Source: Zychaea mexicana
Lineage: Eukaryota > Mucoromycota > Mucoromycetes > Mucorales > Lichtheimiaceae
DNA length: 64,000 bases
Reading direction: 5' to 3'
NCBI RefSeq assembly: GCF_025766255.1
Contig: NW_026516807.1
Location: forward strand, 1-64,000
The notes below the pieces were generated by a model. That model saw nothing but the letters and a program-made list of their open reading frames with translations. It had not been told where the DNA came from and made no database searches. This document shows positions 7,290-21,782 of the stretch, in pieces. Every line of letters starts with the position of its first letter. Position 1 is the first letter of the stretch. The position numbers and the translations under genes are program-made.

Positions 7290-7700
7290 TGATTAAAACA
7301 ATGTCCAGTTTGACTGTTATTATGTTCGGGTTGTCTATTATTCATGTTTAGATTGATATTATTCTTGTCCAGAACGATTTTCATTCATGTACAGATTGAT
7401 TTTTATTTTGTCCAGATTGATTTCACTCATATCCAGATCGATTTATATTCATGTCCAGGTCAATTTATATTCATGTCCAGATCGTTTTATATTCATGTCC
7501 AGATCGATCTTTATTCATGTCCAGGTCAATTTATATTCATGTCCAGCTCGATTTTCATTCATGTCTAGATCGATTTTCATTCATGTCCAACTCGATTTTC
7601 ATTCATGTCCAGCTTGATTTTCATTCATGTCCAGATCAATTAGTATTCATGTCCAGATTAACTTTTATTCATGTCCACTCAGATTAATATTCATATCTAC
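7290..7700. repeat. 22-bp tandem array, right foldback arm
   Basis: Inverted counterpart of the left array, with units close to ATTCATGTCCAGATCGATTT. The outermost copies are the best conserved. Confidence 0.85.
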
Positions 7701-7769
7701 TCTACGTAAAATTAAATCACTTCTGCCTAAATAAAAGTTCAAACGTCTGCTAGGAGATGAAAAATCCTG

Positions 7770-8225: not shown

Positions 8226-8470
8226 ATAAAAATAAAGTAGATTATGTCGGAGTTTTAACTTGCCCTATATTCTATACTTGATCCAAAAAAGAATTGTGTT
8301 GGATGTTCCTTGGGGTCATAGTACCTTAGAAAATAAACATAAGACTTATGATTTATAGGACACCATCGAAAGTATAGAAACTCATGTACGAAAGCGACTG
8401 CATGCTTTTGACACAGAATTTTATCTTGACTGGGCACAGCATTCTATCCAAAACGTCATCTGATTATTCC

Positions 8471-8636
8471 GTTCCAACTATTTTCCCCTAAATGATCAAA
8501 CTGAAGCTGACATCATTCGACGAGTCTATGGATTCATTGATACAGCATTTGACGTTCCAACTATTTTTCCCTAAATGATCAAACTGAAGCTGACATCATT
8601 CGACGAGTCTATGGATTCATTGATACAGCATTTGAT
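8471..8636 (+). repeat. 83-bp tandem duplication
   Basis: Bases 8471-8553 and 8554-8636 are almost identical head-to-tail copies. The unit encodes part of the decayed protein that continues to 9167, and 83 is not a multiple of three, so the duplication shifts the frame. Confidence 0.9.
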
Positions 8637-9167
8637 GACCTCAAGAGAGACGTCTTCATTTCTTTGAAATTATTAATTTCCAGAGATCAACTAGTTAATT
8701 TCTAAAGATTAAGTTAATTTCTAAAGTTTAACTACCTAATTTCTAGAAATTAATAATTTCAAAGAAATGAAGACGTCTCTCCAAGGTTGATATCAGAACG
8801 TAAGTAATACTGTTACGGCTGGGAAAACATCCTAATACTCATCAAGCTACTGACTGGATTATTTATTGCTTTAGAGGGGAAATGGAGAGCACAGCAAGCT
8901 CTGATAGAAAGAATATCCTTCGCACCCCAAATGACCTTAAGAAACACAGTCATCAGACGGATATACTTTTCAAGTGCTCAAAAAGGCGAGATCGGATGCT
9001 GTGAGGTGGGGAAGACGGATGCAGGCGACATTGGCATGAAAGAGAAGAACGAGCTGGGCTTGAAGGTTCCAAAGATGCTGAAAGATATGATGTGGAAGCT
9101 CGTATATGTGTGCCCGAAAAGAAAAACTGAGCTAGTCATCTTTTTATTCGTCATGATGGGTGAGTAA
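8475..9167 (+). pseudogene. decayed Mucorales-type hypothetical protein gene
   Basis: Coding-like pieces in changing frames: NYFPLNDQTEADIIRR at 8475 onward, a middle piece around 8880-9000 (DLKKHSH ... FKCSKRRDR), then CEVGKTDAGDIG ... KMLKDMMWKLV to 9167. This order (acidic region followed by R-x-x, a Ser/Lys-rich region, then E-V-G-K-T-D and L-K-x-P-K-x-L-K-D-M) matches a repeated hypothetical family I associate with Mucorales. The function of that family is not established. It is broken by the 83-bp duplication, by a 137-bp hairpin insertion and by at least one frameshift. The family match is from memory. Confidence 0.45.
8645..8781. mobile_element. palindromic MITE-like hairpin
   Basis: 36-bp arms (8645-8680 and 8746-8781) are perfect inverted repeats and start GAGAGACGTCTTCATTTCTT. 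CAA flanks both ends (8642-8644, 8782-8784), suggesting a 3-bp target duplication. The 65-bp centre holds several TTAATTTCTAAAG-like repeats. It splits the decayed gene at 8475-9167. Confidence 0.75.
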
Positions 9168-9280
9168 TAGGGACTGGTTGAGGTTATAATGATTATGCTC
9201 TGGTTTATTGGTACTAATTGGATGAATAGCCACAATAAGTTGGTGTAATCAAAATAATTTTCATAAAATTAAATTATGTA

Positions 9281-9354
9281 TGTCTTGGCATATATATATT
9301 TAAGAATTTTGAAAAAATAAAAATTGAATTGTTTTTATTATATAAAAATAACAC
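9281..9354 (+). promoter_or_regulatory. promoter block of the 9371 gene
   Basis: TGTCTTGGCATATATATATT, then AAAAATTGA (9319-9327) and TATATAAAAATAA, 43 bases before the ATG at 9371. A colinear copy of 73-74 bases lies at 10452-10524 before the Rep gene. Confidence 0.55.
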
Positions 9355-9370
9355 CTCATAATATTAAACA

Positions 9371-10237
9371 TGAACAATACAATCACATTCAACAATGACA
9401 AAATCGTCCTTGATGCCAATAAATTAAGTATGTTTTTAAATAATTAAAAATATTAACATTAAAGAATTTGCTGAAGAAACGATTTATGAAAAATATGATA
9501 TAAGTTATAATATTAAAAAGATTAAATTATTAATAAAACGTAAAGCATCAAAAAAACAAAAAGAGACATCTAAAAATAATTTAAATAAAGCGAATATTGA
9601 AAGAGATATTATTTCTGTTAAAAAAAGTAAAGAGAAAACATTAACAGAAAATATAAAACTAAAGGAAAAATTACATAAATATGAGAAATACTATGAAAAC
9701 CCCGATACATTACCTCCAAAAGAAATAGTTGCTGAAAATAAAAATTCTCAGCAATTTGAAATTCCTCATATTTCAAATACACAGACAAAAGAAACATATG
9801 CTGAAAATTCAAATTCTCAGCAATCCTCAAATCCTCATATTTCCGATGCAATATTAGAAAACACCTCTGGTGCAGATGCCTCACAGGGTGATTCTGATAA
9901 CGATGAATGTGAATCAGGTGGGGGTGAATATATGTGTATGATTGCATGTAAGCCCTGTATGGATAAATTAAATGATACTTATAATTGTAGTTTTATTGAT
10001 GAACTTATTTTAAAACTTGAAAAGGAAAAATATAAGTATAAAAGGTTCTTTAAGTCATACTTTAGATATTATATTGATTTAATAAAAGCAAAAGAAACAA
10101 ATAGGGATGATATTATGCAAATATGTCAAGAGCAAATGCAGAAGTTAATCATTGAATATAGTCAGATATATACAGATGAAAATGGAAGTGAAGATGCAGA
10201 TAGTAAGGATTCTGAACAACATTATATCGGCCATTAA
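9371..10237 (+). CDS. unrecognised charged protein of the AT-rich element
   Basis: The first 19 codons (MNNTITFNNDK...) end at a GTATGT. A 37-base candidate intron (9428-9464, ending TTAAAG, with TTAAC before it) restores phase, and the frame then runs open to TAA at 10235. Without splicing this would be a frameshift. The protein has about 275 residues: a Lys-rich coiled-coil-like N-half, a Ser/Asn/Gln region (SSNPHISDAIL), an acidic DSDNDECESGGG stretch and a helical C-half with four Cys. A segment of about 20 residues ending ASQG is shared with the Rep N-terminus. No function is recognised. The stop codon lies inside the first 94-bp repeat. Confidence 0.5.
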
Positions 10238-10320
10238 TGGCTATACCGGTTAGGACAGGCTTATTAACTATAATAAAATCAATAAACAACCAATAGCTAG
10301 ACGACTAATAGCAGGACGCC
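10227..10320 (+). repeat. 94-bp direct repeat, copy 1
   Basis: It begins TCGGCCATTAATGGCTATAC and ends ACTAATAGCAGGACGCC. It has the same length and orientation as copy 2 (21689-21782), with conserved ends and a diverged middle. Near the start GCCA-TTAA-TGGC can form a 4-bp stem. It lies between the charged gene and the Rep promoter. Origin or recombination-site function is inferred from its position next to rep. Confidence 0.65.
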
Positions 10321-10451
10321 AATTTTAAAAATACAGGGGACCAGCCATGGTTATGACGATTTTAATGCGATCTAGTAACCCTAGATGACTTATTAGCTAA
10401 GATATGTCAGGATAGCCAAACTAATTTTTATTGAAATAATTCATGCACGAA

Positions 10452-10525
10452 TGTCTTGGCATACATACATTTACATTTTTGAAAAATTTAAAAATTGAAT
10501 TTTTTTTTAATATAAAAATAATACC
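10452..10525 (+). promoter_or_regulatory. promoter block of the Rep-like gene
   Basis: Near-copy of the block at 9281-9354, containing AAAAATTGA (10490-10498) and TATAAAAATAA. The ATG at 10587 is 88 bases after the octamer, the longest spacing of the five. Confidence 0.5.
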
Positions 10526-10586
10526 ACAGAATATAAAGCAAAATATATTTGTTATATTTTTTATTTTTATTACTTCAACAATCGAC

Positions 10587-11937
10587 ATGAACCAACCCAA
10601 CCTTCTCGCATTCTTGGCCATTATGGCTGAATTTGTTCCTATTTTAGGAGTTACATTGATGCTCTTAATTGAAAGAGCAAAACACCTTGCTGAAAACCAT
10701 CAGCATATTGAGTATGAACCTCTTGTCACACAACTGAGGTCAGAACTCGAAAAAGACCTTACACAGGCTAAAGTAGATAAAAAAACTAAAGATAATGCAC
10801 GCAATAAAATAATTGGAAGAATTCGAGAATATGTGAGATTCCTCAAATCCTCAAATCCTCAATTTTCTGATGCAATGTTAGAGGGTAACACCTCTAGTGC
10901 AAAATCCTCACAGGGCGGCAAAGAATTCCAATTCCAAAACACTAAAGGGCTGTTCACATATATTTGTAAGGACTTCCATTTAACAAAAGAGCAAATCATG
11001 GAATGGTTTATAAAACATGAACGTATTGGTTATCGAATTGAAAAGGCAATTGCATGTGATGAAATTGCACCAGAAACCAATGAGAAACATGTACACATAT
11101 GATACAAATGGATGAGCGGTTCGACACAAAAACAGCACGTAAATTCTTTACTATTGATGGTGTTACTCCAAATATTAAACCAGGTGGTAATCCACAAAAG
11201 TCTATTAGCTATTGTATGAAAGGAAAAGATTATATTTGTTATCATATGGATCCAAATTATGAAATTAAACCAGAAAAATGCACCAACAGTTACTTGGATA
11301 TCAATTAATTACTAAGCAGCTTAATATGTGGAAGGCTACCGAAATATATCCAGAATTGCTATGGAAATATGATACTGTAAAATCAAATTTAAATTCTTAC
11401 TTTCATGATGCAGATATGGAAAATAACCCTGGAAATAAATTACATATGTGGTCTATGTTTGGTATTGAAACAATGTTTGGTGGCAAAAATAAGATACCAC
11501 AATACTGGATTGTAGGTCCATCAAATGTAGGTAAGACATATAACATTAATGTATTAGAACAAGGTGGTCATCGAGCATATCTAATGAATAAAGAAAATGA
11601 TTGGTCAGATTATAAGGATGATGATTATGATTTTATGTATAATGAAGAAACAGGTTCTGATTTCAAATTAACATTTTTAAACCAAATGTTAGAAGGAACA
11701 CAGTTAAAACTTAATGGCAAATTCACAAAGTCAATAACTAAAAAGAAAAATATGCCAATAATACTGAATAGTAACTATATGCCGCACATGTTATACAAAA
11801 ACAAATCAGTATATGAGTTAGAGCCAACGCTCAATCGTTTCTATATTATCTATGTTGATAAGAACCGTAAAGGTCATATAATATGGAATCCATACACAAT
11901 GAAGGTGAAGGATTATGAAAATAAATTCATGTATTAG
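10587..11937 (+). pseudogene. CRESS-like Rep (HUH endonuclease plus SF3 helicase), frameshifted
   Basis: Three overlapping frames make one protein of about 450 residues. The first (ATG 10587 to TGA at 11100) has a helical N-terminus, then a Rep motif I-like LFTY and the HUH-type HVH near 11088-11096. The second (about 11099-11308) carries the catalytic motif III, YCMKGKD. The third (about 11278-11937) has Walker A GPSNVGKT, a Walker-B-like acidic FMYNEE, motif C PIILNSN and an NRF near the end. This is the domain order of Reps from circular ssDNA replicons. The breaks are 1-base shifts near 11097-11101, directly after HVH, and near 11275-11308 between the domains. No plausible introns cover them. 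As read it is inactive. Confidence 0.75.
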
Positions 11938-11942
11938 AAAAC

Positions 11943-12695
11943 ATGGATATGTATGAGGACTTATACAAAGGTGAATTCGAAAACGAATACCAAGATCAGC
12001 ATACATTTATCCGTTATACACATAATAGTGGTCAGGATGATATTAAAAAATATACACCGATGGATAAAACAGTAGAGGAACTACAAGAATTAGCTGATAC
12101 AGAAGAATATATGAAGGAACAAGAAGAAAAACATAATAGTAATAATACACAGAACAATAAACAACATAAACCGCCTCAACAAAATAATAGAGGATGGTCA
12201 ACTGTAAAGGTACCACCATCAGTAGATTGTAGGCATTGGGAAGATGTGTTTTATGATATAAAATGTGATGATGTTATAAATAATACTACTGATTGGGAAA
12301 ACCTACCAGAAGATATAGAGAAACATAAATACATAGATGTAAGTACATCTGAATCAGAGAAAAGCAGTGACTGCAACATACCAAGTAATATACCAAAACG
12401 TAAAAAGAAAAAAAGACACATTAAAAATAAACGGAGAAACAAGCAAATAGTAGAAGAAATACAGCCAAAAGAATATTTTAAAAAGCATAAGGATATAAAA
12501 CAGGCTATAATAGATGATATAGATATAACAAAAGAAACTGACATCAAAAATAAATCAACAGATACTAATATAAGTACAAGTATAACTAATGAATGCATAA
12601 AACATAAATATAATTGGGCAAGTAAACGAAAGGTTGATGCGGTCAGTTTCAATATGAGATTTTTTAATAAGCAAATAAGTAAGAAATTAATTTAG
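11943..12695 (+). CDS. charged C-terminal or downstream frame of the Rep unit
   Basis: A 250-residue intact frame starting five bases after the Rep frame stops. It is extremely charged: acidic and Gln/Asn-rich for the first 100 residues, a basic KRKKKKRHIKNKRRNK run near residue 155 suggestive of nuclear targeting, then Lys/Asp repeats. No enzyme motif is visible. It has no AAAATTGA block of its own. It may be a shifted C-terminal extension of Rep or a second gene on the same transcript. Its stop overlaps the end of the convergent chromodomain frame by four bases (12692-12695). Confidence 0.4.
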   Translation: MDMYEDLYKGEFENEYQDQHTFIRYTHNSGQDDIKKYTPMDKTVEELQELADTEEYMKEQEEKHNSNNTQNNKQHKPPQQNNRGWSTVKVPPSVDCRHWEDVFYDIKCDDVINNTTDWENLPEDIEKHKYIDVSTSESEKSSDCNIPSNIPKRKKKKRHIKNKRRNKQIVEEIQPKEYFKKHKDIKQAIIDDIDITKETDIKNKSTDTNISTSITNECIKHKYNWASKRKVDAVSFNMRFFNKQISKKLI

Positions 12696-13280
12696 AGCTG
12701 AATACCATGTGTGGCTATATATTCATGTAGCATTTCCTGGGAATTAAACTTATCAACTGTTAACCAACTATTATCCTTTACATTATATCCAACCCACTTA
12801 ACCTCAAATATGTACTTATTATCAGTATACACATGTCCTACAATCTTCTCAATTTCATATGAATTACTATGTTCTATATTTCTCTGTTCTCTTTGATTTT
12901 TTCTCTTGCGTTTAGATGTATTATTTTCAGTTTCGTCCTCACTATCTATAGCCATATCTATTGATTGATTAATGTTAAGCTGTAGAAATTTCTGCTGCAT
13001 GTCAACCATTTCGTTATATTCAGTATTTACTTTTTGCTCATTTGAAAATACTAAGTCAAGTTTGTTTTTCTTACTTAGGAATTCAAAATCTTTTCCATAC
13101 CATAATTTATGATGTGGTTGTACTCTATATTATACTTATTTACAAATCGCCATATATTAGTAAGAATACAAGCAACACGAAACTGAATATTATAATATCT
13201 TATATCGGTTATTTGCAATGCTGCACGATTATTATTAAATCGTTCAAATTTGGAGCCTAACATAGAGAACTGTGCTTCTA
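12692..13280 (-). pseudogene. C-terminal part of DDE transposase with chromodomain
   Basis: Reading leftward from 13280, the frame carries the end of a PIF/Harbinger-type DDE domain (SKFERFNNNRAALQITD ... ACILTNIWRF). Near 13110-13135 the coding frame shifts by one. It then continues through a Lys-rich linker (KLWYGKDFEFLSKKNK, EMVDMQQKFLQLN) into a chromodomain (SYEIEKIVGH ... FEVKWVGY ... NSWLTV) ending at 12692. Cage aromatic residues are present. The shift may be recent damage, because both sides look well preserved. If continuous, the chromodomain would direct the transposase to methylated-histone chromatin. The remaining gene parts are at 16308-16957 and 21320-21574. Confidence 0.65.
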
Positions 13281-16200
13281 TGGTGCAACCGATTTTAAAT
13301 AGACAAAAATGAAAAATTTATAACAAAATTTTGATTTGAAATCCCGCTACTATAAAAGGAAATTATTACATGCGACTAGGGCGACGATGGGAGGTGAAGA
13401 CAGTTTTTGCTTTTTTGTAAAGCTCATCTACTTCGCGGCCATCAACATTCCCTCCAGCATAAATTTCTATATAAAGCCATGATTTGGCAGCGAAGCGCCG
13501 GATCATTGGCAAAGAAACAGAATTTAGAATTCCTGGAAGACGTCGCTCAAGCGATCTATAAGAATAGTCGCACTGCAAACGTGCTTCACGCTTTGCTCTG
13601 CCCCAATAGCGTTCTATGAAGTTGGTCTCGCAATGGAATTTTGGATAGAGCTCAAACTTGTGATGTCTTTTTTTCACAGCTTCCTCTAGAGCGGATTTCT
13701 GATTTTTAAAATCAGGCTCGTTTGCAAGAATATGGCGAGCACAACATTGAACATTAGTTGCTGATTCAGTGCCACAACTTACACGTACTCCACCTTCAGG
13801 CCATTTGCCCCTTTCTTTCAAAATCTATAATATCATGTTTTGTAGAGTATATGTTCTGAGTACTTACCCACTTTATGAAAGATTGTGACGGTTTAATCTT
13901 ACTGTTTGAATCCCTTTGAAGTATCTTTGCTTATAGCGGGCTCCGTTACGGCGTCTTGTATACTGCTTGTCCTCGTAGTAAAAGTCGTAGAGCTTTGCTG
14001 ATCCATTCTCATTCAAAGTGTAGCCTTGAGCTTTGAATGGGTACTTCAAGTCTTCTACCTTTTGGTCCTTGAGGATCATCTGGCTTGGGCGCAAGGCGTT
14101 TGCAGCATAGGCATTGTGGTTTGAGCTTTGGTCAAAACAGAAGACACCTAACAATTGCATACATTTAAGTCATTTTTAAGATAACTTCCTTCTGCATGAC
14201 ATACCAATGCAACTAGGGTGGAGTGCCTCGAAAATTGGCAATGCCTTTTTTGTTAACTGTTCGAGCATATGCTCATTCTTCCAATATCCTTCGTTATTTT
14301 TACCGGCCTTGAAATATTCTCGGGCTTCAAATGGAATATTGTGCTATTCAGCAAATCCAGGATCAAGGCGCATTGGACCATGGCACTCGCAAAGAAAATC
14401 GCTGACCATGATCGAGCCTCCTAAACCCTTTTTTCGCAGCACCGTATCCCCTTCTTCAACCCAAATATCAGCCTTGGCATCATTTGAATAGAAGGTGGAT
14501 TCATCGTGAGTGACGAGGACATGGCGGAGACGTCCGTTTTTTAGATCTGGCGTGATCTCTTGTTCCATATCATCACCTGTATACTGAATCATCAGCTTTC
14601 GGTAATCCAACATTCTTTTTGCCCATTCAATGCGGTATGCTACAACGTCAGGTCTTTCATGTCCGTCATAGTAAATCTTATTATGGGGTTATAAGGATTA
14701 GTCAATATTTGACGTAATTATACATCATCATTGCTGCCTATTCCTTCTACTCACATTTTTCGTGTAGCGCTTATATCTGTAGCCCCATGCATGCAAATGG
14801 TTCAAAATCGTATCTTCAGCTACAGATCCTTGTACTCCAAGCGTTTCTGGAATTATTCGATTTTGCAGCTCACTTTTCAACAAAGCAGCTGAGCGCAGCT
14901 CTGGCTTGGTCTTCTTCCAGAAAGCAATACATGCTTTTTTCACATCCTCGTCGCTCAAAAATGATTTGCGCTTGGCATGCTTTCCTTGACGGTGCGATGG
15001 TAAGTGAGCGTTCAGAGCGAGATACGTCTTTGTCCAATGGCCAATTGCACGGCTGCGGTAAATAGAGCCACCTTGTCAAAGCGTCGTTGCTACTTGCATG
15101 CATGCTTCACCTTTCTTCATGCCATTTTGGCGGCACTCAAAGTACTTGGAAATACTTAATAAGCGAAGGGATTCATAGGCTTTCAAACCACCTATTTCCG
15201 ACTTGGAATTAGAGACGCGCTTAATTTTTTTTGATAGAGCTGGCATATATTCGACAATTAGCTCGAGTTCTTGCTGACTTTTTGACAATGTTGGCGCCGC
15301 AATGATTGTTGGATCCGGTGTGGAGTCGGAGCTATCGCCAGCAACTGAAGGTGTTGTAGTAGCAGTAAGAAAGTAGAAGTCCGTCATCCGATGACACGTT
15401 TTTGCGATTTTTTTGGTTTCCTTGTCATCTTTCTCCTTTCGCCAGACTGACATAACCGAAGTGCCTACATACAAATTTTGCTTATATCAGCATTTAAACT
15501 ATCATGGTTTGTATTTCTCTCAATGCACCTCTCCTATGCGAGCTTCTAAGATAGCTGTCACTGTTGGGCTTCCAAGAGAGAAGACTACGCCACAAAATAG
15601 CCTTCAGTTCATCTTCTGAAAAGCCACACAGCATCCAATCGTCGACATCTTCTTCATAGGTCAAAATGGATAACTGCACGTCATCCAGCTGATTAACCTC
15701 TTCGATGGTATTTTCTGCAGCCATAGCTGGGACACTTTCAGGTTCAGATACATTAGGTACATCAGGTACATCAGGTACTGTAGCTACGATAGTAACGACA
15801 CTCTACATATAATGAATATATCTAATTCAGCAAATGATGATGTGTAGTACAGCATATATAATCTAACCTCAGGAGCAAATTTTCTATTTAAGCACGCCTT
15901 TTTCATAGCAGCAGTGGCTTTTCCTTTACGTTTAGGCATGATAAATGATACAAAAGAAGGCAGAGGAAGAACAAGGAACAATCATGAATATAATTAGCTA
16001 TGTATATCAGAATACCATGAAGCTTGTGTAACATTGCTGATATTTTAGGTGACACAAACGGCTTAACGGTCTTTGAAATATAACAAAATTTCAGCCTTCC
16101 CTGCTTAAAGTCCCCAAAAGTCCCCAACTTCAAATGCTATCTGCTCCTCGAGATCTACTTTTGAAAAGAATCTAAAACATAAGTTTTAAACTACATATGT

Positions 16201-16307
16201 CACTCTATTAGACTTGTGAATTGGTTTTTTGATTTTTTTTGTTCCCATTGACTAGATAGATTCCAAAAAAATCTAAAAATTTTGTCTATTTAAAATCGGT
16301 TGCACCA
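13281..16307 (-). mobile_element. Tc1/mariner-type element B inside the DDE-chromodomain gene
   Basis: 28-bp inverted ends begin TGGTGCAACCGATTTTAAAT. TA flanks at 13279-13280 and 16308-16309. Removing it and one TA makes the flanking DDE gene read through in one frame, through the catalytic-Glu region. Length is 3,027 bp. It carries a decayed transposase related to that of element A. Its ends share a GACAAAATTTT-like inner motif with the MITE at 26593-27483. Confidence 0.92.
13366..15939 (-). pseudogene. DDE_3 transposase of element B, decayed
   Basis: It starts MPKRKGKA at 15939. A short first exon is followed by an intron ending before SVVTIVA, a Val/Pro/Asp repeat region, and several further exons. 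The core motifs match element A: VLVTHDESTFYSND, CFDQSSNHNA and CETNFIERYWG. The C-terminus ends FTSHRRPSRM at 13366. At least two in-frame stops disrupt it: a TGA after QVATTL (near 15077) and a TAG after DPGFAE (near 14341). Exon edges are only approximate. The element is probably mobilised, if at all, by a relative. Confidence 0.7.
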
Positions 16308-16957
16308 TATTGCTGAACGAAATGATCCAAACTTGTTATTAAAGTATGTCTCATTGATTGTTAACTTTTGTCCTGGTTCTTTTCTTATGGGATGTAAAAA
16401 ATTACGATCATAAAAACTATATCCAGCATCTGTCGCATTATCTTTAAACTTTTGTATAAATAAGTTATATCCACCATCCATTCCTAAACAATCTGCCTCA
16501 CTTATTTTTTTATATAGTTTCATATTATTAAACATAGTACCATCATTTCCGATAGCACATTTTTCAGATACTGAAACATGTGTAATTATTTCATTCATAT
16601 CCTGTATAACTTGTGTACGTACAGCTGGCCCTTTTAATTTATATGAATATAATTGTGAATGTGACTCATTTGGTTTATAATACTTTATTTTACTATCATG
16701 TCCATCGATAAATAGTGTAACATTCTTAAAACCATCTGGATTGTTTATTATTGCTGATAGAATGCGAATACGTGGTGATGAGAACATACTATCTAGATCT
16801 TGTTTTACCTTTTTATTCAATTCATTATAGTTAGTAATCCAGAACCGCTTATATAAATCATAAAATGTTGCATATGGCATAACAGTATGCATATCCTTTC
16901 CTGATATGCCTGATACTATATGATATAATAATGCAAGTCCTTTTTCAATCTCGCGGT
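16308..16957 (-). pseudogene. central catalytic part of the DDE transposase
   Basis: Reading leftward from 16957: IEKGLALLYH, a helical region, the first Asp motif (VTLFIDGHDSKI), a beta-rich KLKGPAVRTQVIQD segment, and a GMDGGYNLF motif with the second Asp. The Glu motif (FRSAIE) lies at the break with element B. This is the pattern of the DDE_Tnp_4 (PIF/Harbinger) superfamily. Its N-terminus is beyond the hAT element. The last 8 bases (16950-16957) are the hAT target duplication. The frame is open throughout. Confidence 0.75.
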
Positions 16958-19900
16958 TAGGGGTCCTCACGGTTCGGTTCGGTTCGGTTCTTGAAGGGAA
17001 CCGAACCGAACCGTGAAAAGGATGGAACCGAACCGAACCGTGAGGAACCGTGGAACCGTAGAACCGAACCGAGCTTATATATAAAAAGAGGAAAATTCAG
17101 TTCTTACATGAAAAGCTGATATAGCATCAAATTTTATAATAAATTTTAATGATTATAGTAAAAGAAAGTTTATTTCAACATGTTGCAGTGAACGATGAGT
17201 CAAAATGAGCAGGGGGAACAATGTAAACGAGAAGCAATCAGCTATTAAAGAATCGCAGCATAAAGCCAAGAAAATAACTTATTGAGCTTAAAATATTTGA
17301 AGCATGATATCGTTTATTAGTAAAGTATGATATTAACTAGGTATGAATTGGGGGAAAACTATGCAGTAATAGACATGCTAATATGTGTCTGTGAATGTCT
17401 GCGCCGTGTATAATATCTAATGATAAAGGAAAGCAAAAACAAAAAAGAAAAGATTTCCAGGAATCTGAAATGCCCAATCTCAGACGAGATGCACAGACTT
17501 GATCTGAGCAAAAGAATGGGTTGAGGTACAAGTTGTACGTCATGAGCAAAGGCCGCCGTTAAACAAGCAGTACGTCACGAACAAAAACGCTAAACCTACA
17601 AGCAATACGTCATGAACAAAGATGTCGTGAGCGGCAAAGTGAAGTGTGAAGTTGTCTAAAGTTCCGTTTCGATCGGAGATGGTGTACTGACAAAGCAGTA
17701 TCCTTTTTACTTTGGAGTTTTACTTACATACCACGGTACCGGTAGAAAGCAAGTTATATGCCAATTCACATGTAAAACATATATAGTGTTTTCTTCAAAC
17801 TTAAAAGATGGGATATAATCCGAGGGTGAAATAGAAGCTCATGTTTAGCTTTGAGGAGAGGTTAGCAAAGATCTGTTTATGATAACTTGACGTCGGAAGA
17901 AGTGTGAAAATGATGTCATATTATTCAATCTGTCGGAAGATGTATGCTTAAGTAAGAGAAAGCGATGATATCATTTTCCCTATTTGGTTACCTGCCAGCG
18001 GTTATTGTATAGAAGCATTGATAGTTACAGCATTAACCCACCATGATGAGGCGAACTTACATGATATCATCGTTTTGCTAGATTGGAAGAAGTGTATTGT
18101 ATATAGTAAAAACGTGATGATATCATGGACCGGGACTCATTATCCAGAAACACACTAACATCGATGAGATCATCATAGTAATGATTAGCAGCAATCGGTT
18201 CATTGCTTTGGATAAAATTGAATGATATATAAAGGGCTTTATTCTTCGCATCATCGATCCGTGTATCCTCTATATACTTGACACACTACTCTACCTCAAA
18301 CACTTTACCGTTTTCATTCATCTCAAAATATGCCTTACCAAGCTGGTTCTTCTTCCCGCGATGCCCGTGCTGCTCTTCATGATGGGGTAATTATCAATCT
18401 GTGATCGGTCGTGTCGTGTTGTGTCGTGTTGTGTTGTATCGTGTTGTATCGCAAATCCCTAACATATATCGATGCTTGTAATATTTTACGTAAGGCGCAA
18501 GAAAATCCTGTCCGAGCTCCCACATTACCTCGTATGCCTTCTGCCATGTCGGTGGATAGTGTATCGCTTGCTGCTGAAGAGACGGATGGAGAGGTCATCA
18601 CTGATTCCGAATCTGTTTCTATGTCCATCGTACGATCGCAAGGCAGTGCTGCTACCAAGGAGAAAAGCTGGGTGATCAAGAACAAGTTAGGCGAGCGCTA
18701 TGATGACGACAATGGCAAGCCGCGCATCCGATGTCTAGTTGCAAACTGTGGCAAGACGTTTGCATCCGAACAAGGCTCCACGTCCGCCGTTATCAAGCAC
18801 TTGAACAAGGTCCATAATGTCACCAAGGAACATGGTCCACATACCGGAACTAAGCGTGCTGGCGGTCCACTTGACTCGTTTGTACAATCGAAACGTGCCC
18901 GTGTATTCACTGCCGAACTATTCATCAAGGCGTTCATCAAATTTATCGTAAAAAGCAAGTTACCATTTACCATGGCTGAAAATGATGAATTGCAAGAACT
19001 TTTGGAAATCGCGCAATCTGCAAGTGACATGGAAATGGTGAAGCTTCCAAGTGCCGATACTATCACAAGAAAGGTAAAGAAATTAGTGATTTTGTTTTTT
19101 TTAGTTATGCACCATCAAAAAGAAAATAATTCTAATATCCTATTCCTTTGAATTTACCTTTAGACCATTGAAGAGTACAAGCTTTACAAAGCCAAGTTAC
19201 GTTCCTTATTGGATACGCTTCCTACGATTTCGTGCACACTCGACGGTTGGACCAGCCCATACAACGATGCCTTCTTAACTGTTACTGGGCACTGGATCTC
19301 GCAAACGACCTGGAAAATGCATGAAGTTATCCTTGGCTTTGTGCCACTGAACGGACCCCACTCGGCGGAAAACTTGGCCAATGCTTTCATAGGTGTCTTG
19401 CACGACTTCGGCTTAGGACCCAAGTTGTTCACGATTACGACGGATAATGCCTCCAACATGAAAAAAATGGCCCGTGTCATCGAAGAGCACGGTAACGAGA
19501 ACGGATGGTAAGCACTCAAAATTAATATAGCAATGCATAATGTATAGTATAGCCTATTTGTAAACTTACATAATACCATTATAACTGTAGGTCGTTCCGC
19601 GCTGATAAGCATCATATACCCTGCCTTGGTCATGTGCTTAACTTGGCTGTCCAGGATATTCTGCGTTGGGGATTGGAACCAGTAACGAACGATGTTTGTG
19701 CCGATACCGACGCCGATGATCTAGAAGGAGGGAACGATGGCGATGTCGATGCAACATACGAGGTCAATGCTGAGCAATGGAAGAGCAAGAAATAGAAGCG
19801 ATGAGCGTACTTATCAAGCTGCGCAAAGGAATTACGAAGATTCGGTAAGTTATCACTATCATCAAACAGTCGTTTTTACTACTTGAGATATTCATTAGCA

Positions 19901-21319
19901 CTATGTACTCATCACGCTGTTTAATGACATAGTTCCTCACCCCAACGCTCGGAGAAGTTCATGCGCCAGCAGCAAACTGATTGTTGTACCCAGCTCATCC
20001 TCCAACTCGATGTGCGCACCCGCTGGAACTCCACGTACGAGATGCTTGCCCGTGCTTCCTTACTGCGCGAACCGTACAATGTGATGTGCACCAATAGCAC
20101 CAACGACGAGCTCCTCCCATACATCTTAACGCAAGAAGAGTGGAAGCGAGTTGACCAGCTGAGGGAAATGCTGAAGCCATTTTACGAGTCCACCTTGGAC
20201 CTCTCAGCAAGTACGAGCCACGCCACCATCAATGTCGCCATTGCACACTACAACAAGCTCATGGATTGCCTGGAAGACGTCGATAACAAGGAATATCCAC
20301 GAGAATTGAAACGAGCAGCAAGACGCGGCCTGGAAAAGCTTCGAAAATACTACTGCAAGGTCGATGACACGGACGTATACGCCATTGCAACGGCGATGGA
20401 TCCTCGGATGAAGTTTTCTTGGTGGCGCCAAGCTGGATGGGAACCCGAGTACCAAGTCATGAGCCAAAATATGGTGCACCGAGCCTGGGCTGCATTCCCC
20501 AAGGACGTTGCTATGCGGCCGGAGGTGAATGAAGAGGTGCAAAAGCTGTACGATCTATACAGAACATCAACGAGCGGCGACGAATTGGACGATTACTTGG
20601 AAGAACGGTTAAGAAGACCAGAACCAAGCCAGGAGGGGCAAGGATCGCCGGTCTTGAACTACTGGAAATCCCAGCCACAGTGGCCCAATTTGGCAGCAAT
20701 GGCAGCGCAGTACTTGGCGGTTCCGGTCACTTCAACACCCTCAGAACGGTGCTTTTCACGAAGTCGACTGTTACTGCCGTACACGCGCAATCGCCTCCAA
20801 CCGGAAAGCATCGAACGTTTGATGCTTCTAGATTCATGGTGCTCCTTTGACTTCGACGATTAGTCCTTCCTTTTTTTTCCGTGCTCCTTTTTCTTCTGCC
20901 CTTTTTCCCCCTCTTTGCTTTCTCTTTCTTTGCTTCCTCTTTCTGCTTTCCCACTACCTTTTTTTCCTGCCCCTTCCTCCCCTCCGCTCTTCATTTTCTA
21001 CTTCCTTTTTGTTCCCTTCGTCTTGATATACCGTCCGTGCAACAAAATAAAGATCAGACCTTTATATACAGGGTCTCTTTGGGAAACAAAATATATCTTC
21101 GACGTTTTGTGAATGGTCTTTTGCTTCTTTAGTTTAAATTCTAGTCACTCATTGTGTTAATCATGAAATCATTAAAAGCACCATGTAGTCTTCGGTTCTT
21201 CGGTTCTACGTAGAAAATGTCGGTTCGGTTCCGGTTCGGTTCTTGATAGGAACCGAACCGTGTTTTTACGGTTCCGGTTCGGTTCGGTTCCGGTTCCACG
21301 GTTCTGATGAGGATCCCTA
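16958..21319 (+). mobile_element. hAT transposon with 8-bp target duplication
   Basis: CTCGCGGT is duplicated at 16950-16957 and 21320-21327. The ends are TAGGGGTCCTCA and, inverted, TAGGGATCCTCA. Both subterminal regions carry many GGTTC/GAACC repeats in both orientations. Length is 4,362 bp. It encodes a BED-hATC transposase (18330-20863). Removing the element with one duplication joins the two DDE gene parts in frame. Confidence 0.95.
18330..20863 (+). CDS. hAT-family transposase (BED finger plus hATC), probable frameshift
   Basis: Exons: 18330-18386, 18495-19073, 19164-19507, about 19579-19857 and 19933-20863. A BED zinc finger (CLVANC ... HLNKVH) lies near residues 80-130. The RNase H-like core has CTLDGWTS (first Asp) and TTDNASNM (second Asp). 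The C-terminus carries the hATC dimerisation region (YWKSQPQWPNLAAMA ... TSTPSERCFSRS). Start MPYQAGSSS is supported by the phase-0 first intron. In the fourth exon the frame ends at AEQWKSKK-stop, while a neighbouring frame continues EEQEIEAMSVLIKLRKG. That looks like a 1-base shift near 19780-19798, so the copy may be inactive. Confidence 0.85.
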
Positions 21320-21574
21320 CTCGCGGTATGGCCCTGGATATTCAATATTTCTATATAAAACTGTAAGAAAATAAAATACAGGTATAAATCCAAATCTATT
21401 AAGTAATACATCCTTTATATCATTTATTGTATTATTCTTCATATCTTTAATAGCTGTTCTATGATTAAATCTATGTTGCATTTCAGGCCAAGATTTATCA
21501 AGAAAAGTCCATTTATTATCAATTAAATTTTTAATTTCAATATCGAGTTGTTCAGTGTGTTGTGTTGTGTTCAT
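21320..21574 (-). pseudogene. N-terminal part of the DDE-chromodomain transposase
   Basis: It starts with ATG at 21574 (MNTTQHTEQLDIEIKNLID), giving about 85 residues of mainly helical sequence ending EYPGPYRE at the hAT insertion. It is preceded by the shared AAAATTGA block, 76 bases upstream. The sequence continues in frame at 16957 after removal of the hAT element and one CTCGCGGT. This part has no stop, so the gene was probably intact when hAT arrived. Confidence 0.6.
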
Positions 21575-21629
21575 TTTTATTTGTTGTTATGTACTTTAAA
21601 CAATCGCTCTTTTTTTTCTCGTGGGAGGC

Positions 21630-21660
21630 TACCAATATAAATAAAAAAATTCAATTTTTA
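21630..21660 (-). promoter_or_regulatory. AAAATTGA block of the DDE-chromodomain gene
   Basis: On the minus strand AAAATTGA (21658-21651) is followed by a T-run and TTTATATTGG. It precedes the ATG at 21574 and is next to the second 94-bp repeat. Confidence 0.45.
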
Positions 21661-21688
21661 TTATTTTTATTGTAAATCAATAATTAAT

Positions 21689-21782
21689 TCGGCCACTGAT
21701 GGTTATACCGATCATAGCAATTTTATTATCTATATTACAGCTAGTAGATTATAATTGGTTAGACAACTAATAGCAGGACGCC
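21689..21782 (+). repeat. 94-bp direct repeat, copy 2
   Basis: It begins TCGGCCACTGATGGTTATAC and ends ACTAATAGCAGGACGCC. Length and orientation are identical to copy 1. The early hairpin is kept with changed bases (CCA-TCAG-TGG read on the other strand). It contains TCTATATTACAG, loosely like a Rep nicking site, but this is not conserved in copy 1. Confidence 0.65.

What the first reader, a model, noticed from the sequence alone, without database searches (positions are those of the whole stretch)
9281..21782. AT-rich element pairing a CRESS-like Rep with a DDE transposase-chromodomain gene
One AT-rich island carries a HUH-SF3 Rep (LFTY, HVH, YCMKGKD, GPSNVGKT, PIILNSN) on one strand. Convergent to it is a PIF/Harbinger-type DDE transposase leading into a chromodomain. 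Direct 94-bp repeats flank the pair. After removing two later transposons the unit is about 4.06 kb (11,462 minus 3,029 minus 4,370). Rep-like genes integrated in eukaryotes are known, but I know of no element combining this Rep with a chromodomain DDE transposase. It could be a replicative mobile element that copies by rolling circle and integrates by DDE into marked chromatin.
Basis: partly seen in the sequence, partly recalled or inferred. Interest (0 to 1): 0.87.

Follow-up and report, generated by a model that had tools for sequence, protein, structure and literature searches.

The report
Fungal transposon carrying viral-type replication gene
A fungal genome holds dozens of copies of a jumping DNA element that joins a cut-and-paste transposase with a replication-starter gene of the kind used by small circular DNA viruses, plus a hairpin that looks like that gene's start site, so it may copy itself in two ways.

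Summary
The pairing is real, repeated and mobile. The window copy (10336-21782; about 4.05 kb of element plus two later transposons) belongs to a multi-copy family in a 50-Mb genome, probably fungal. 45 of 67 Rep places have a convergent transposase match within 6 kb. Eight uninterrupted 4.03-4.07 kb copies share both ends, and 9 of 17 end pairs have matching 3-bp target duplications. The transposase is one 494-aa DDE_Tnp_4-chromodomain protein. Rep is 703 aa: HUH endonuclease (nearest solved relative: redondovirus Rep) plus SF3-like helicase. Both Rep domains are under purifying selection (dN/dS about 0.05-0.15). A hairpin with TATTAC in its loop lies near the right end of all 9 Rep-type ends aligned, and in none of 5 A-only ends. 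I read it as a PIF/Harbinger-like transposon that captured a CRESS replication module. Element identity is near certain; rolling-circle replication is inferred. A truffle element with Rep and transposase ORFs (Liu 2011) is precedent; the fusion type, target duplications, measured selection and candidate origin look new.

The parts
10336..21782 (+). Rep + DDE-chromodomain transposon (window copy; about 4,048 bp of element once the two later insertions and their target repeats are not counted)
   Evidence: Ends match those of 8 uninterrupted copies elsewhere in the genome
10336..10366 (+). left end, GGGGACCRGCCATGGTTATGA...
   Evidence: 21 of the 22 other left ends printed start GGGGA at the aligned base; the 22nd (C179) was printed three bases late
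21755..21782 (+). right end, ...CTAATAGYAGGACGCC; imperfect inverted match to the left end (9 of the first 13 bases, shown on copy C295)
10587..12695 (+). Rep gene, broken in this copy (N-terminal helical part, HUH endonuclease, SF3-like helicase, basic C-terminal part); 703 aa in two open copies elsewhere
11278..11937 (+). ORF with the SF3-like helicase (GPSNVGKT, PIILNSN); Pfam PF00910 match below cut-off
   Evidence: 85 matches in the genome
12692..13278 (-). C-terminal part of the transposase gene with the chromodomain (ORF 12692-13009)
   Evidence: Pfam PF00385 31.6 bits; continuous with the DDE part in open copies
16310..16957 (-). DDE catalytic part of the transposase gene
   Evidence: Pfam PF13359 29.6 bits; 151 matches in the genome, more not listed
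21328..21574 (-). N-terminal part of the transposase gene
21723..21754 (+). hairpin with loop TATTACAGCTAG (candidate rolling-circle origin), 10-bp stem with one mismatch
13281..16307 (-). later insertion: transposon with inverted ends, flanked by TA (Tc1/IS630-like by these signs; its Pfam DDE matches are below cut-off)
   Evidence: not between the two parts in the other copies
16958..21319 (+). later insertion: hAT transposon with 8-bp target repeat CTCGCGGT
   Evidence: Pfam Dimer_Tnp_hAT 53 bits
9175..10320 (+). upstream tandem unit of a Rep-less 'A-gene' family, flanked by AAT on both sides
   Evidence: 18 other places matched to within 8 bases of both ends, 81-98%; flanks
10321..10335 (+). 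15-bp spacer between the two units, near-constant at seven tandem junctions in the genome

Best explanation
It is a DNA transposon of PIF/Harbinger-like type that has taken a CRESS-type replication module into the place of its second gene. Shown: one element with two convergent genes, a DDE-chromodomain transposase and a HUH-SF3 Rep, bounded by fixed short imperfect inverted ends, inserted with 3-bp target duplications, in dozens of copies. Shown: Rep's endonuclease and helicase parts are held by selection, with catalytic residues mostly kept. Shown: the Rep-type right ends aligned carry a hairpin with TATTAC in its loop that the A-only ends aligned lack. Inferred: the transposase excises and inserts the element; the chromodomain steers it to marked chromatin; Rep nicks the hairpin (by analogy TATT|AC) once the ends are joined, or at the resident copy, and makes extra copies by rolling-circle synthesis for the transposase to insert.
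For: Gene pairing at 45 of 67 Rep places, modal gap 1,339-1,351 bp. Eight uninterrupted 4.03-4.07 kb copies. Matching 3-bp flanks at 9 of 17 end pairs, 5 of the 8 complete copies; chance is near 1 in 64 per pair. Single 494-aa transposase-chromodomain ORF in four fetched copies (C135, C115, C292, C90), DDE_Tnp_4 42.8 and Chromo 29.9 bits, both over cut-off. Rep HUH domain matches a PDB Rep, E 1.3e-6, named as redondovirus (Vientovirus) Rep. dN/dS of copy C179 against the two distant Reps: HUH 0.08 and 0.05, SF3 0.06 and 0.06, at dS 0.4-1.6. Catalytic residues in rows of 75% identity or more: H168 38 of 38, H170 35 of 38, Y209 37 of 38, K317 36 of 36, against 89% for the average position. Hairpin in all 9 Rep-type right ends aligned, in none of 5 A-only ends nor in C212; 64 genome places at up to 3 mismatches, reversed-pattern control 0. 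Stem and loop sizes (10 bp, 12 nt) lie in the range given for viral origins, stem 9-11 and loop 10-13 (PMC7826260, passages).
Against: No circle, transcript or activity was seen. The folding energy of the right end is ordinary (z -0.70). Shuffled elements hold a hairpin of this kind 0.26-0.32 times on average somewhere, though only 1-3 of 300 within the last 100 bp. Only one stem pair shows a double change, and 72 of 500 shuffles reach it. The nonamer matches geminivirus TAATATTAC at 7 of 9 places, and with a 10-bp stem only TATTAC lies in the loop. A+DDE elements without Rep (C112, C115) carry the hairpin too. Rep-less A-only units spread with related ends, and two open transposases (C113, C76) show no Rep nearby, so Rep is not needed for mobility of relatives. 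None of the 8 complete copies has a full-length ORF for both genes. Two of the six Rep ORFs used for dN/dS have lost a catalytic residue. AlphaFold models were too poor to use.
Confidence: 0.65

Rival explanations
1. Rep is a captured DNA-binding protein that replaces the helper gene (the A gene) of a Harbinger-like element: it binds the ends and helps the transposase, or regulates it, without rolling-circle replication.
For: Rep sits in the same convergent slot as the A gene of C112 and C115. In C115 the last 30 or so residues of A resemble Rep's (76-87%), and a 70-bp stretch of A-unit DNA is shared with Rep (about 83%). Autonomous Harbinger elements of Ectocarpus have two tail-to-tail genes (PMC12477816, passages). 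Rep-less relatives move.
Against: HUH histidines, tyrosine and Walker lysine are kept in nearly all rows, and the helicase is among the most conserved parts (dN/dS 0.06-0.11), more than a binding role needs.
Confidence: 0.2
2. An integrated CRESS virus or its remnant inside which, or beside which, a transposon landed; the pair then spread passively by the transposase, with Rep as cargo.
For: Rep is of viral type. Most copies are broken, the window copy included.
Against: No third gene that could be a capsid was seen between the ends, though no capsid search was made. Ends and gap are constant. Passive cargo would not show dN/dS of 0.05-0.1 at dS near 1 between Rep lineages. At C68:28k a related Rep stands with a transposase only about 58% identical.
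Confidence: 0.12
3. Chance juxtaposition of unrelated repeats in a repeat-rich island.
For: The island does hold other transposons; 10 transposase matches also lie within 6 kb upstream of Rep places and 2 downstream on the same strand.
Against: 45 of 67 convergent pairs, 21 at constant spacing, and shared ends.
Confidence: 0.01

Closest known systems
Geminivirus-like transposon of Tuber melanosporum (Liu et al. 2011, PMC3198968; passages read)
   Same: Fungal multi-copy element with a CRESS-type Rep ORF and transposase ORFs between terminal repeats; 42 Rep genes or remnants reported there.
   Different: There: 37-bp inverted repeats, no obvious target duplication, interrupted ORFs in a reconstructed copy; in the passages read the transposase superfamily is not named, and the main text holds no 'stem-loop', 'nonanucleotide', 'origin of replication' or 'chromodomain'. 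Here: about 13-bp imperfect ends, 3-bp duplications, DDE_Tnp_4-chromodomain fusion, selection shown, candidate origin. The sequences could not be compared.
PIF/Harbinger (PHIS) DNA transposons
   Same: DDE_Tnp_4 transposase, 3-bp target duplication, two tail-to-tail genes (compare PMC12730594 and, for Ectocarpus, PMC12477816; passages).
   Different: C-terminal chromodomain; no TNA or ANT target preference; Rep as the second protein.
CRESS-DNA viruses; redondovirus Rep nearest among solved structures
   Same: HUH endonuclease plus SF3-like helicase; hairpin with TATTAC.
   Different: No capsid gene seen; long N- and C-terminal extensions; sits between transposon ends with a DDE transposase.
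Teratorn (PMC10175614; search listing with the start of its abstract only; the herpesvirus part is recalled)
   Same: A transposon fused with a viral replication system.
   Different: Giant (180 kb), piggyBac-like transposase, dsDNA virus.
Helitrons (PMC6668415 passages; details recalled)
   Same: HUH protein in a eukaryotic transposon.
   Different: No DDE transposase or target duplication there; other helicase type (recalled).

Membership tests
PIF/Harbinger (PHIS) superfamily | DDE_Tnp_4-type transposase | tested here: met
   PF13359 42.8 bits, cut-off 24.8; triad residues kept in 30/30, 30/30 and 40/40 rows of 75% identity or more
PIF/Harbinger (PHIS) superfamily | 3-bp target site duplication (canonical per PMC12730594; 0, 2 or 3 bp in relatives) | tested here: met
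   9 of 17 end pairs
classic Harbinger or Pangu target pattern | TNA or ANT target (PMC12477816) | tested here: not met
   Duplications CTC (twice), ACA, ATG, ATT, CTA, TTG, TTT, TCA; only TCA and ATT would fit. So not filed in either subgroup.
Harbinger elements with a Myb/SANT protein (so described for Nuwa in PMC12730594; wider use recalled) | second gene with Myb/SANT domain | tested here: not met
   No such Pfam match in Rep or in the A protein of C115
CRESS-type Rep | HUH motifs I, II, III | tested here: met
   FTY at 123, HVH at 168, YCMK at 209; PDB Rep match E 1.3e-6
CRESS-type Rep | SF3 helicase domain | tested here: inconclusive
   Motifs present; PF00910 15.3 bits under cut-off 21.5 and absent from the whole-protein scan; second PDB stretch not significant
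CRESS replicon | origin hairpin with nonanucleotide ending in TATTAC | tested here: inconclusive
   Hairpin with TATTAC at all 9 Rep-type ends aligned; nonamer 7 of 9 to TAATATTAC; weak statistics
CRESS virus / provirus | capsid gene | tested here: not met
   No third gene among ORFs listed between the ends; no capsid profile search was made
Helitron (features recalled) | no target duplication, no DDE transposase | tested here: not met
Tuber Rep transposon (Liu 2011) | sequence relatedness of Rep and transposase | not testable with these tools
   No sequences of it could be fetched; protein database switched off

The most novel reading that the evidence does not exclude
A eukaryotic transposon with a two-stage life: a DDE-chromodomain transposase cuts it out and inserts it, and between the two a viral-type Rep copies the joined-end circle by rolling circle from an origin in the element's right end. 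Head-to-tail arrays with one near-constant 15-bp spacer, found at seven junctions in mixed orders, would be traces of circle junctions or multimers.
Probability: 0.35. Interest if true: 0.9.

Novelty: new variant of a known kind. Interest (0 to 1): 0.74.

Why it matters
It would be a transposon that adds a replication step of its own to cut-and-paste movement, and a test case for how small circular DNA viruses and transposons give rise to each other. The origin hairpin, the Rep and the transposase can each be tested apart, in a genome where related elements with Rep, with the A gene, or with neither found nearby stand side by side as natural controls.

Tried and rejected
Chance juxtaposition: rejected. 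The 94-bp repeats as flanks: rejected. A Pfam RNA_helicase scan of the genome found nothing at E 0.001, so that family search is too weak for this Rep. Viral contigs gave no relative of Rep or transposase; plasmids gave none of Rep. PHROGs and NCBIfam gave nothing useful. AlphaFold of whole Rep failed (mean pLDDT 29); of the HUH part pLDDT 49. Foldseek with that poor model put the Vientovirus Rep endonuclease first but without significance (E 0.026); used only to name the PDB entry. Left-end hairpin (ATCTAG-TAACC-CTAGAT): energy ordinary (z -0.16), dropped. Literature: among the rows listed (one search gave no paper), judged by title and start of abstract, only the truffle paper reports a Rep-plus-transposase element; most subscription journals are not held, and Repbase was not searched.
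Full report
What was checked. The window is part of contig C51 of an unnamed 50.3-Mb, 305-contig genome. Chitin synthase matches (13 rows, none in the 14 control genomes) fit a fungus; the phylum was not tested.

The element. The Rep helicase piece of the window has 85 matches in the genome, the HUH piece of copy C179 79 at E up to 10, the DDE piece 151 with more not listed, and the right-end DNA 41 rows. In one search the match stops near query base 208, that is window 21782, in most rows, which marks the terminus. Aligning copies fixed the left end at 10336. Eight copies are uninterrupted from end to end at 4,031-4,071 bp: C295, C262, C79 twice, C242, C57, C35, C141. The ends are GGGGACCGGCCAT... 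and ...GGACGCC, with 9 of 13 inverted matches on C295. Of 17 end pairs that the end patterns found in the fetched stretches and the window, 9 have the same 3 bp on both sides, against about 0.3 expected at 1 in 64 each; 5 of the 8 complete copies are among them, the window copy is not. Two of the 17 pairs are A+DDE units (C112 with, C115 unit 1 without matching flanks). The triplets share no motif.

The genes. The transposase is one ORF of 494 aa in four fetched copies (C135, C115, C292, C90) and 518 aa in C224, with DDE_Tnp_4 and Chromo domains over cut-off. Rep is 703 aa in C179 and one C303 copy, 696, 693 and 688 aa in C35, C140 and the other C303 copy. It has a helical N-terminal part (low-confidence model), HUH motifs, an SF3-like helicase and a basic C-terminal part. 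By sequence the only significant solved relatives are two chains named replication-associated protein, which names as Vientovirus FB Rep (Redondoviridae). Gemini_AL1 and Viral_Rep match below cut-off. The ends of the Rep and transposase ORFs overlap by 4 bp in some copies (C179, C57, C35).

Pairing. 45 of 67 Rep places have a transposase match downstream on the other strand within 6 kb, 21 of them with a gap of 1,339-1,351 bp between the matched pieces. For comparison, 2 transposase matches lie downstream on the same strand and 10 upstream on either strand. Of the 22 unpaired, some are tandem or deleted units (C115, C194, C140, C68:530k) and some lie near contig ends (C202, C49, C63:402). A second Rep lineage (about 81-85% identical over long stretches) occurs with its own ends and target duplications (C140, C68:529k; a third copy, C57:497k, has no matching flanks) and with a transposase of about 58% identity at C68:28k and chromodomain remnants of 57-75% at C140, C57 and C68:529k.

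Selection. By the Nei-Gojobori method on six open Rep ORFs (501-703 aa), dN/dS over whole pairs is 0.08-0.27. Against C179, the HUH part gives 0.05-0.15 and the helicase 0.06-0.11; for the two distant copies HUH 0.08 and 0.05, helicase 0.06 and 0.06, at dS 0.4-1.6. The N-terminal part gives 0.16-0.31, the C-terminal part 0.05-0.28. The transposase gives 0.25-0.41 between subfamilies, and 0.30-0.66 among three close copies with few changes. Rows aligned at 75% identity or more keep most catalytic residues, although single copies have lost one: L022 the tyrosine, L062 the second histidine.

Candidate origin. The 9 Rep-type right ends aligned share a hairpin whose TATTAC lies about 45 bp from the terminus: TTATTATCTA(TATTACAGCTAG)TAGATTATAA in lineage R1, TTACAATCCA(TATTACAGCCAA)TAGATTGTAA in lineage R2. 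It is also present in two A+DDE elements (C112, C115), and absent from 5 of 5 A-only ends and from C212, a transposase element with A-type left-end DNA whose second gene was not determined. The genome holds 64 such places at up to 3 mismatches, the reversed pattern none; 60 of 64 keep TATTAC (counted by eye). A T:A pair in R1 is C:G in R2. That is one event, and the formal count is weak (72 of 500 shuffles reach it; the true register pairs 88% of cells against at most 63% when slid). Shuffled elements hold such a hairpin somewhere 0.26-0.32 times on average, in the last 100 bp in 3, 1 and 2 of 300. Energy alone is unremarkable. I rate this as good but not decisive.

Rep-less kin. The A gene stands in the same convergent slot in C112 and C115, and an A-only 1,146-bp family, of which the window's upstream unit is a copy, has 18 other places matched to within 8 bases of both ends (40 of 124 candidates scored). 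The A protein of C115 ends in about 30 residues that resemble Rep's (76-87%), and a 70-bp stretch is shared between A-unit DNA and Rep upstream of the HUH part. So modules have probably been swapped by recombination. Two open transposases (C113, C76) show neither Rep nor A in the 5.5-6 kb read, so this transposon type lives without Rep too.

Tandem junctions. Right end, 15 bp AATTTTAARAATTCA-like, left end: seven places in the genome, reversed control 0. Orders differ: A then Rep (window, C194, C79), A+DDE then Rep (C115), Rep then A (C53, C303), Rep+DDE then Rep (C174). Window and C194 share the left flank, so they are probably one event. In C115 the whole pair is flanked by TCA on both sides. 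A scan with exact ends and gaps of 0-30 found three places, two with the 15-bp spacer and one with 13 other bases (C301, not followed); its reversed control found two, so that scan says little about other gap lengths. I have no firm explanation; multimer or circle-junction insertion is one.

How it likely works. Shown: the unit spreads as a DNA transposon, and both Rep domains are under selection. Inferred: transposase cut-and-paste, chromodomain aiming (by analogy with retrotransposon integrases, recalled), Rep nicking at the right-end hairpin, and rolling-circle copies inserted by the transposase.

Novelty. Liu et al. 2011 reported a truffle Rep-plus-transposase element (passages), so the kind is known in outline. 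A DDE_Tnp_4-chromodomain partner, 3-bp duplications, a Rep under measured selection and an end-located origin candidate did not appear in the paper searches named under Tried and rejected. None of the 8 complete copies has full-length ORFs for both genes, so present activity is not shown.

Noticed in passing
10321-10335 and six other junctions (C53, C79, C115, C174, C194, C303): Head-to-tail tandem units joined by a near-constant 15-bp AT-rich spacer, in different orders of Rep and A units.
   Followed up: partly
9175-10320: A-only 1,146-bp element, a separate family with 18 other near-full-length places; the A protein of C115 has no Pfam match over cut-off.
   Followed up: partly
7377-7728: Tandem array of a 22-bp unit, about 16 copies long.
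   Followed up: no
8470-8635 and 8645-8781: A tandem duplication of 83 bp (99% identical), followed by a 68-bp inverted repeat (85%) with 1 bp between the arms.
   Followed up: no
L067:3008-3535, L069:4641-5099, L064:1099-1602: Small basic ORFs of 152-175 aa near A or DDE-chromodomain copies, perhaps another accessory gene of the family; no Pfam match over cut-off in the two scanned.
   Followed up: no
L071:1635-1907 (C38): A lone, decayed HUH fragment about 46-56% identical to this Rep, on a contig with no transposase match in the list; possibly an older lineage.
   Followed up: no
13281-16307 and 16958-21319: Two nested transposons with clean TA and 8-bp target repeats inside the window copy; both are younger than the copy they sit in.
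   Followed up: yes
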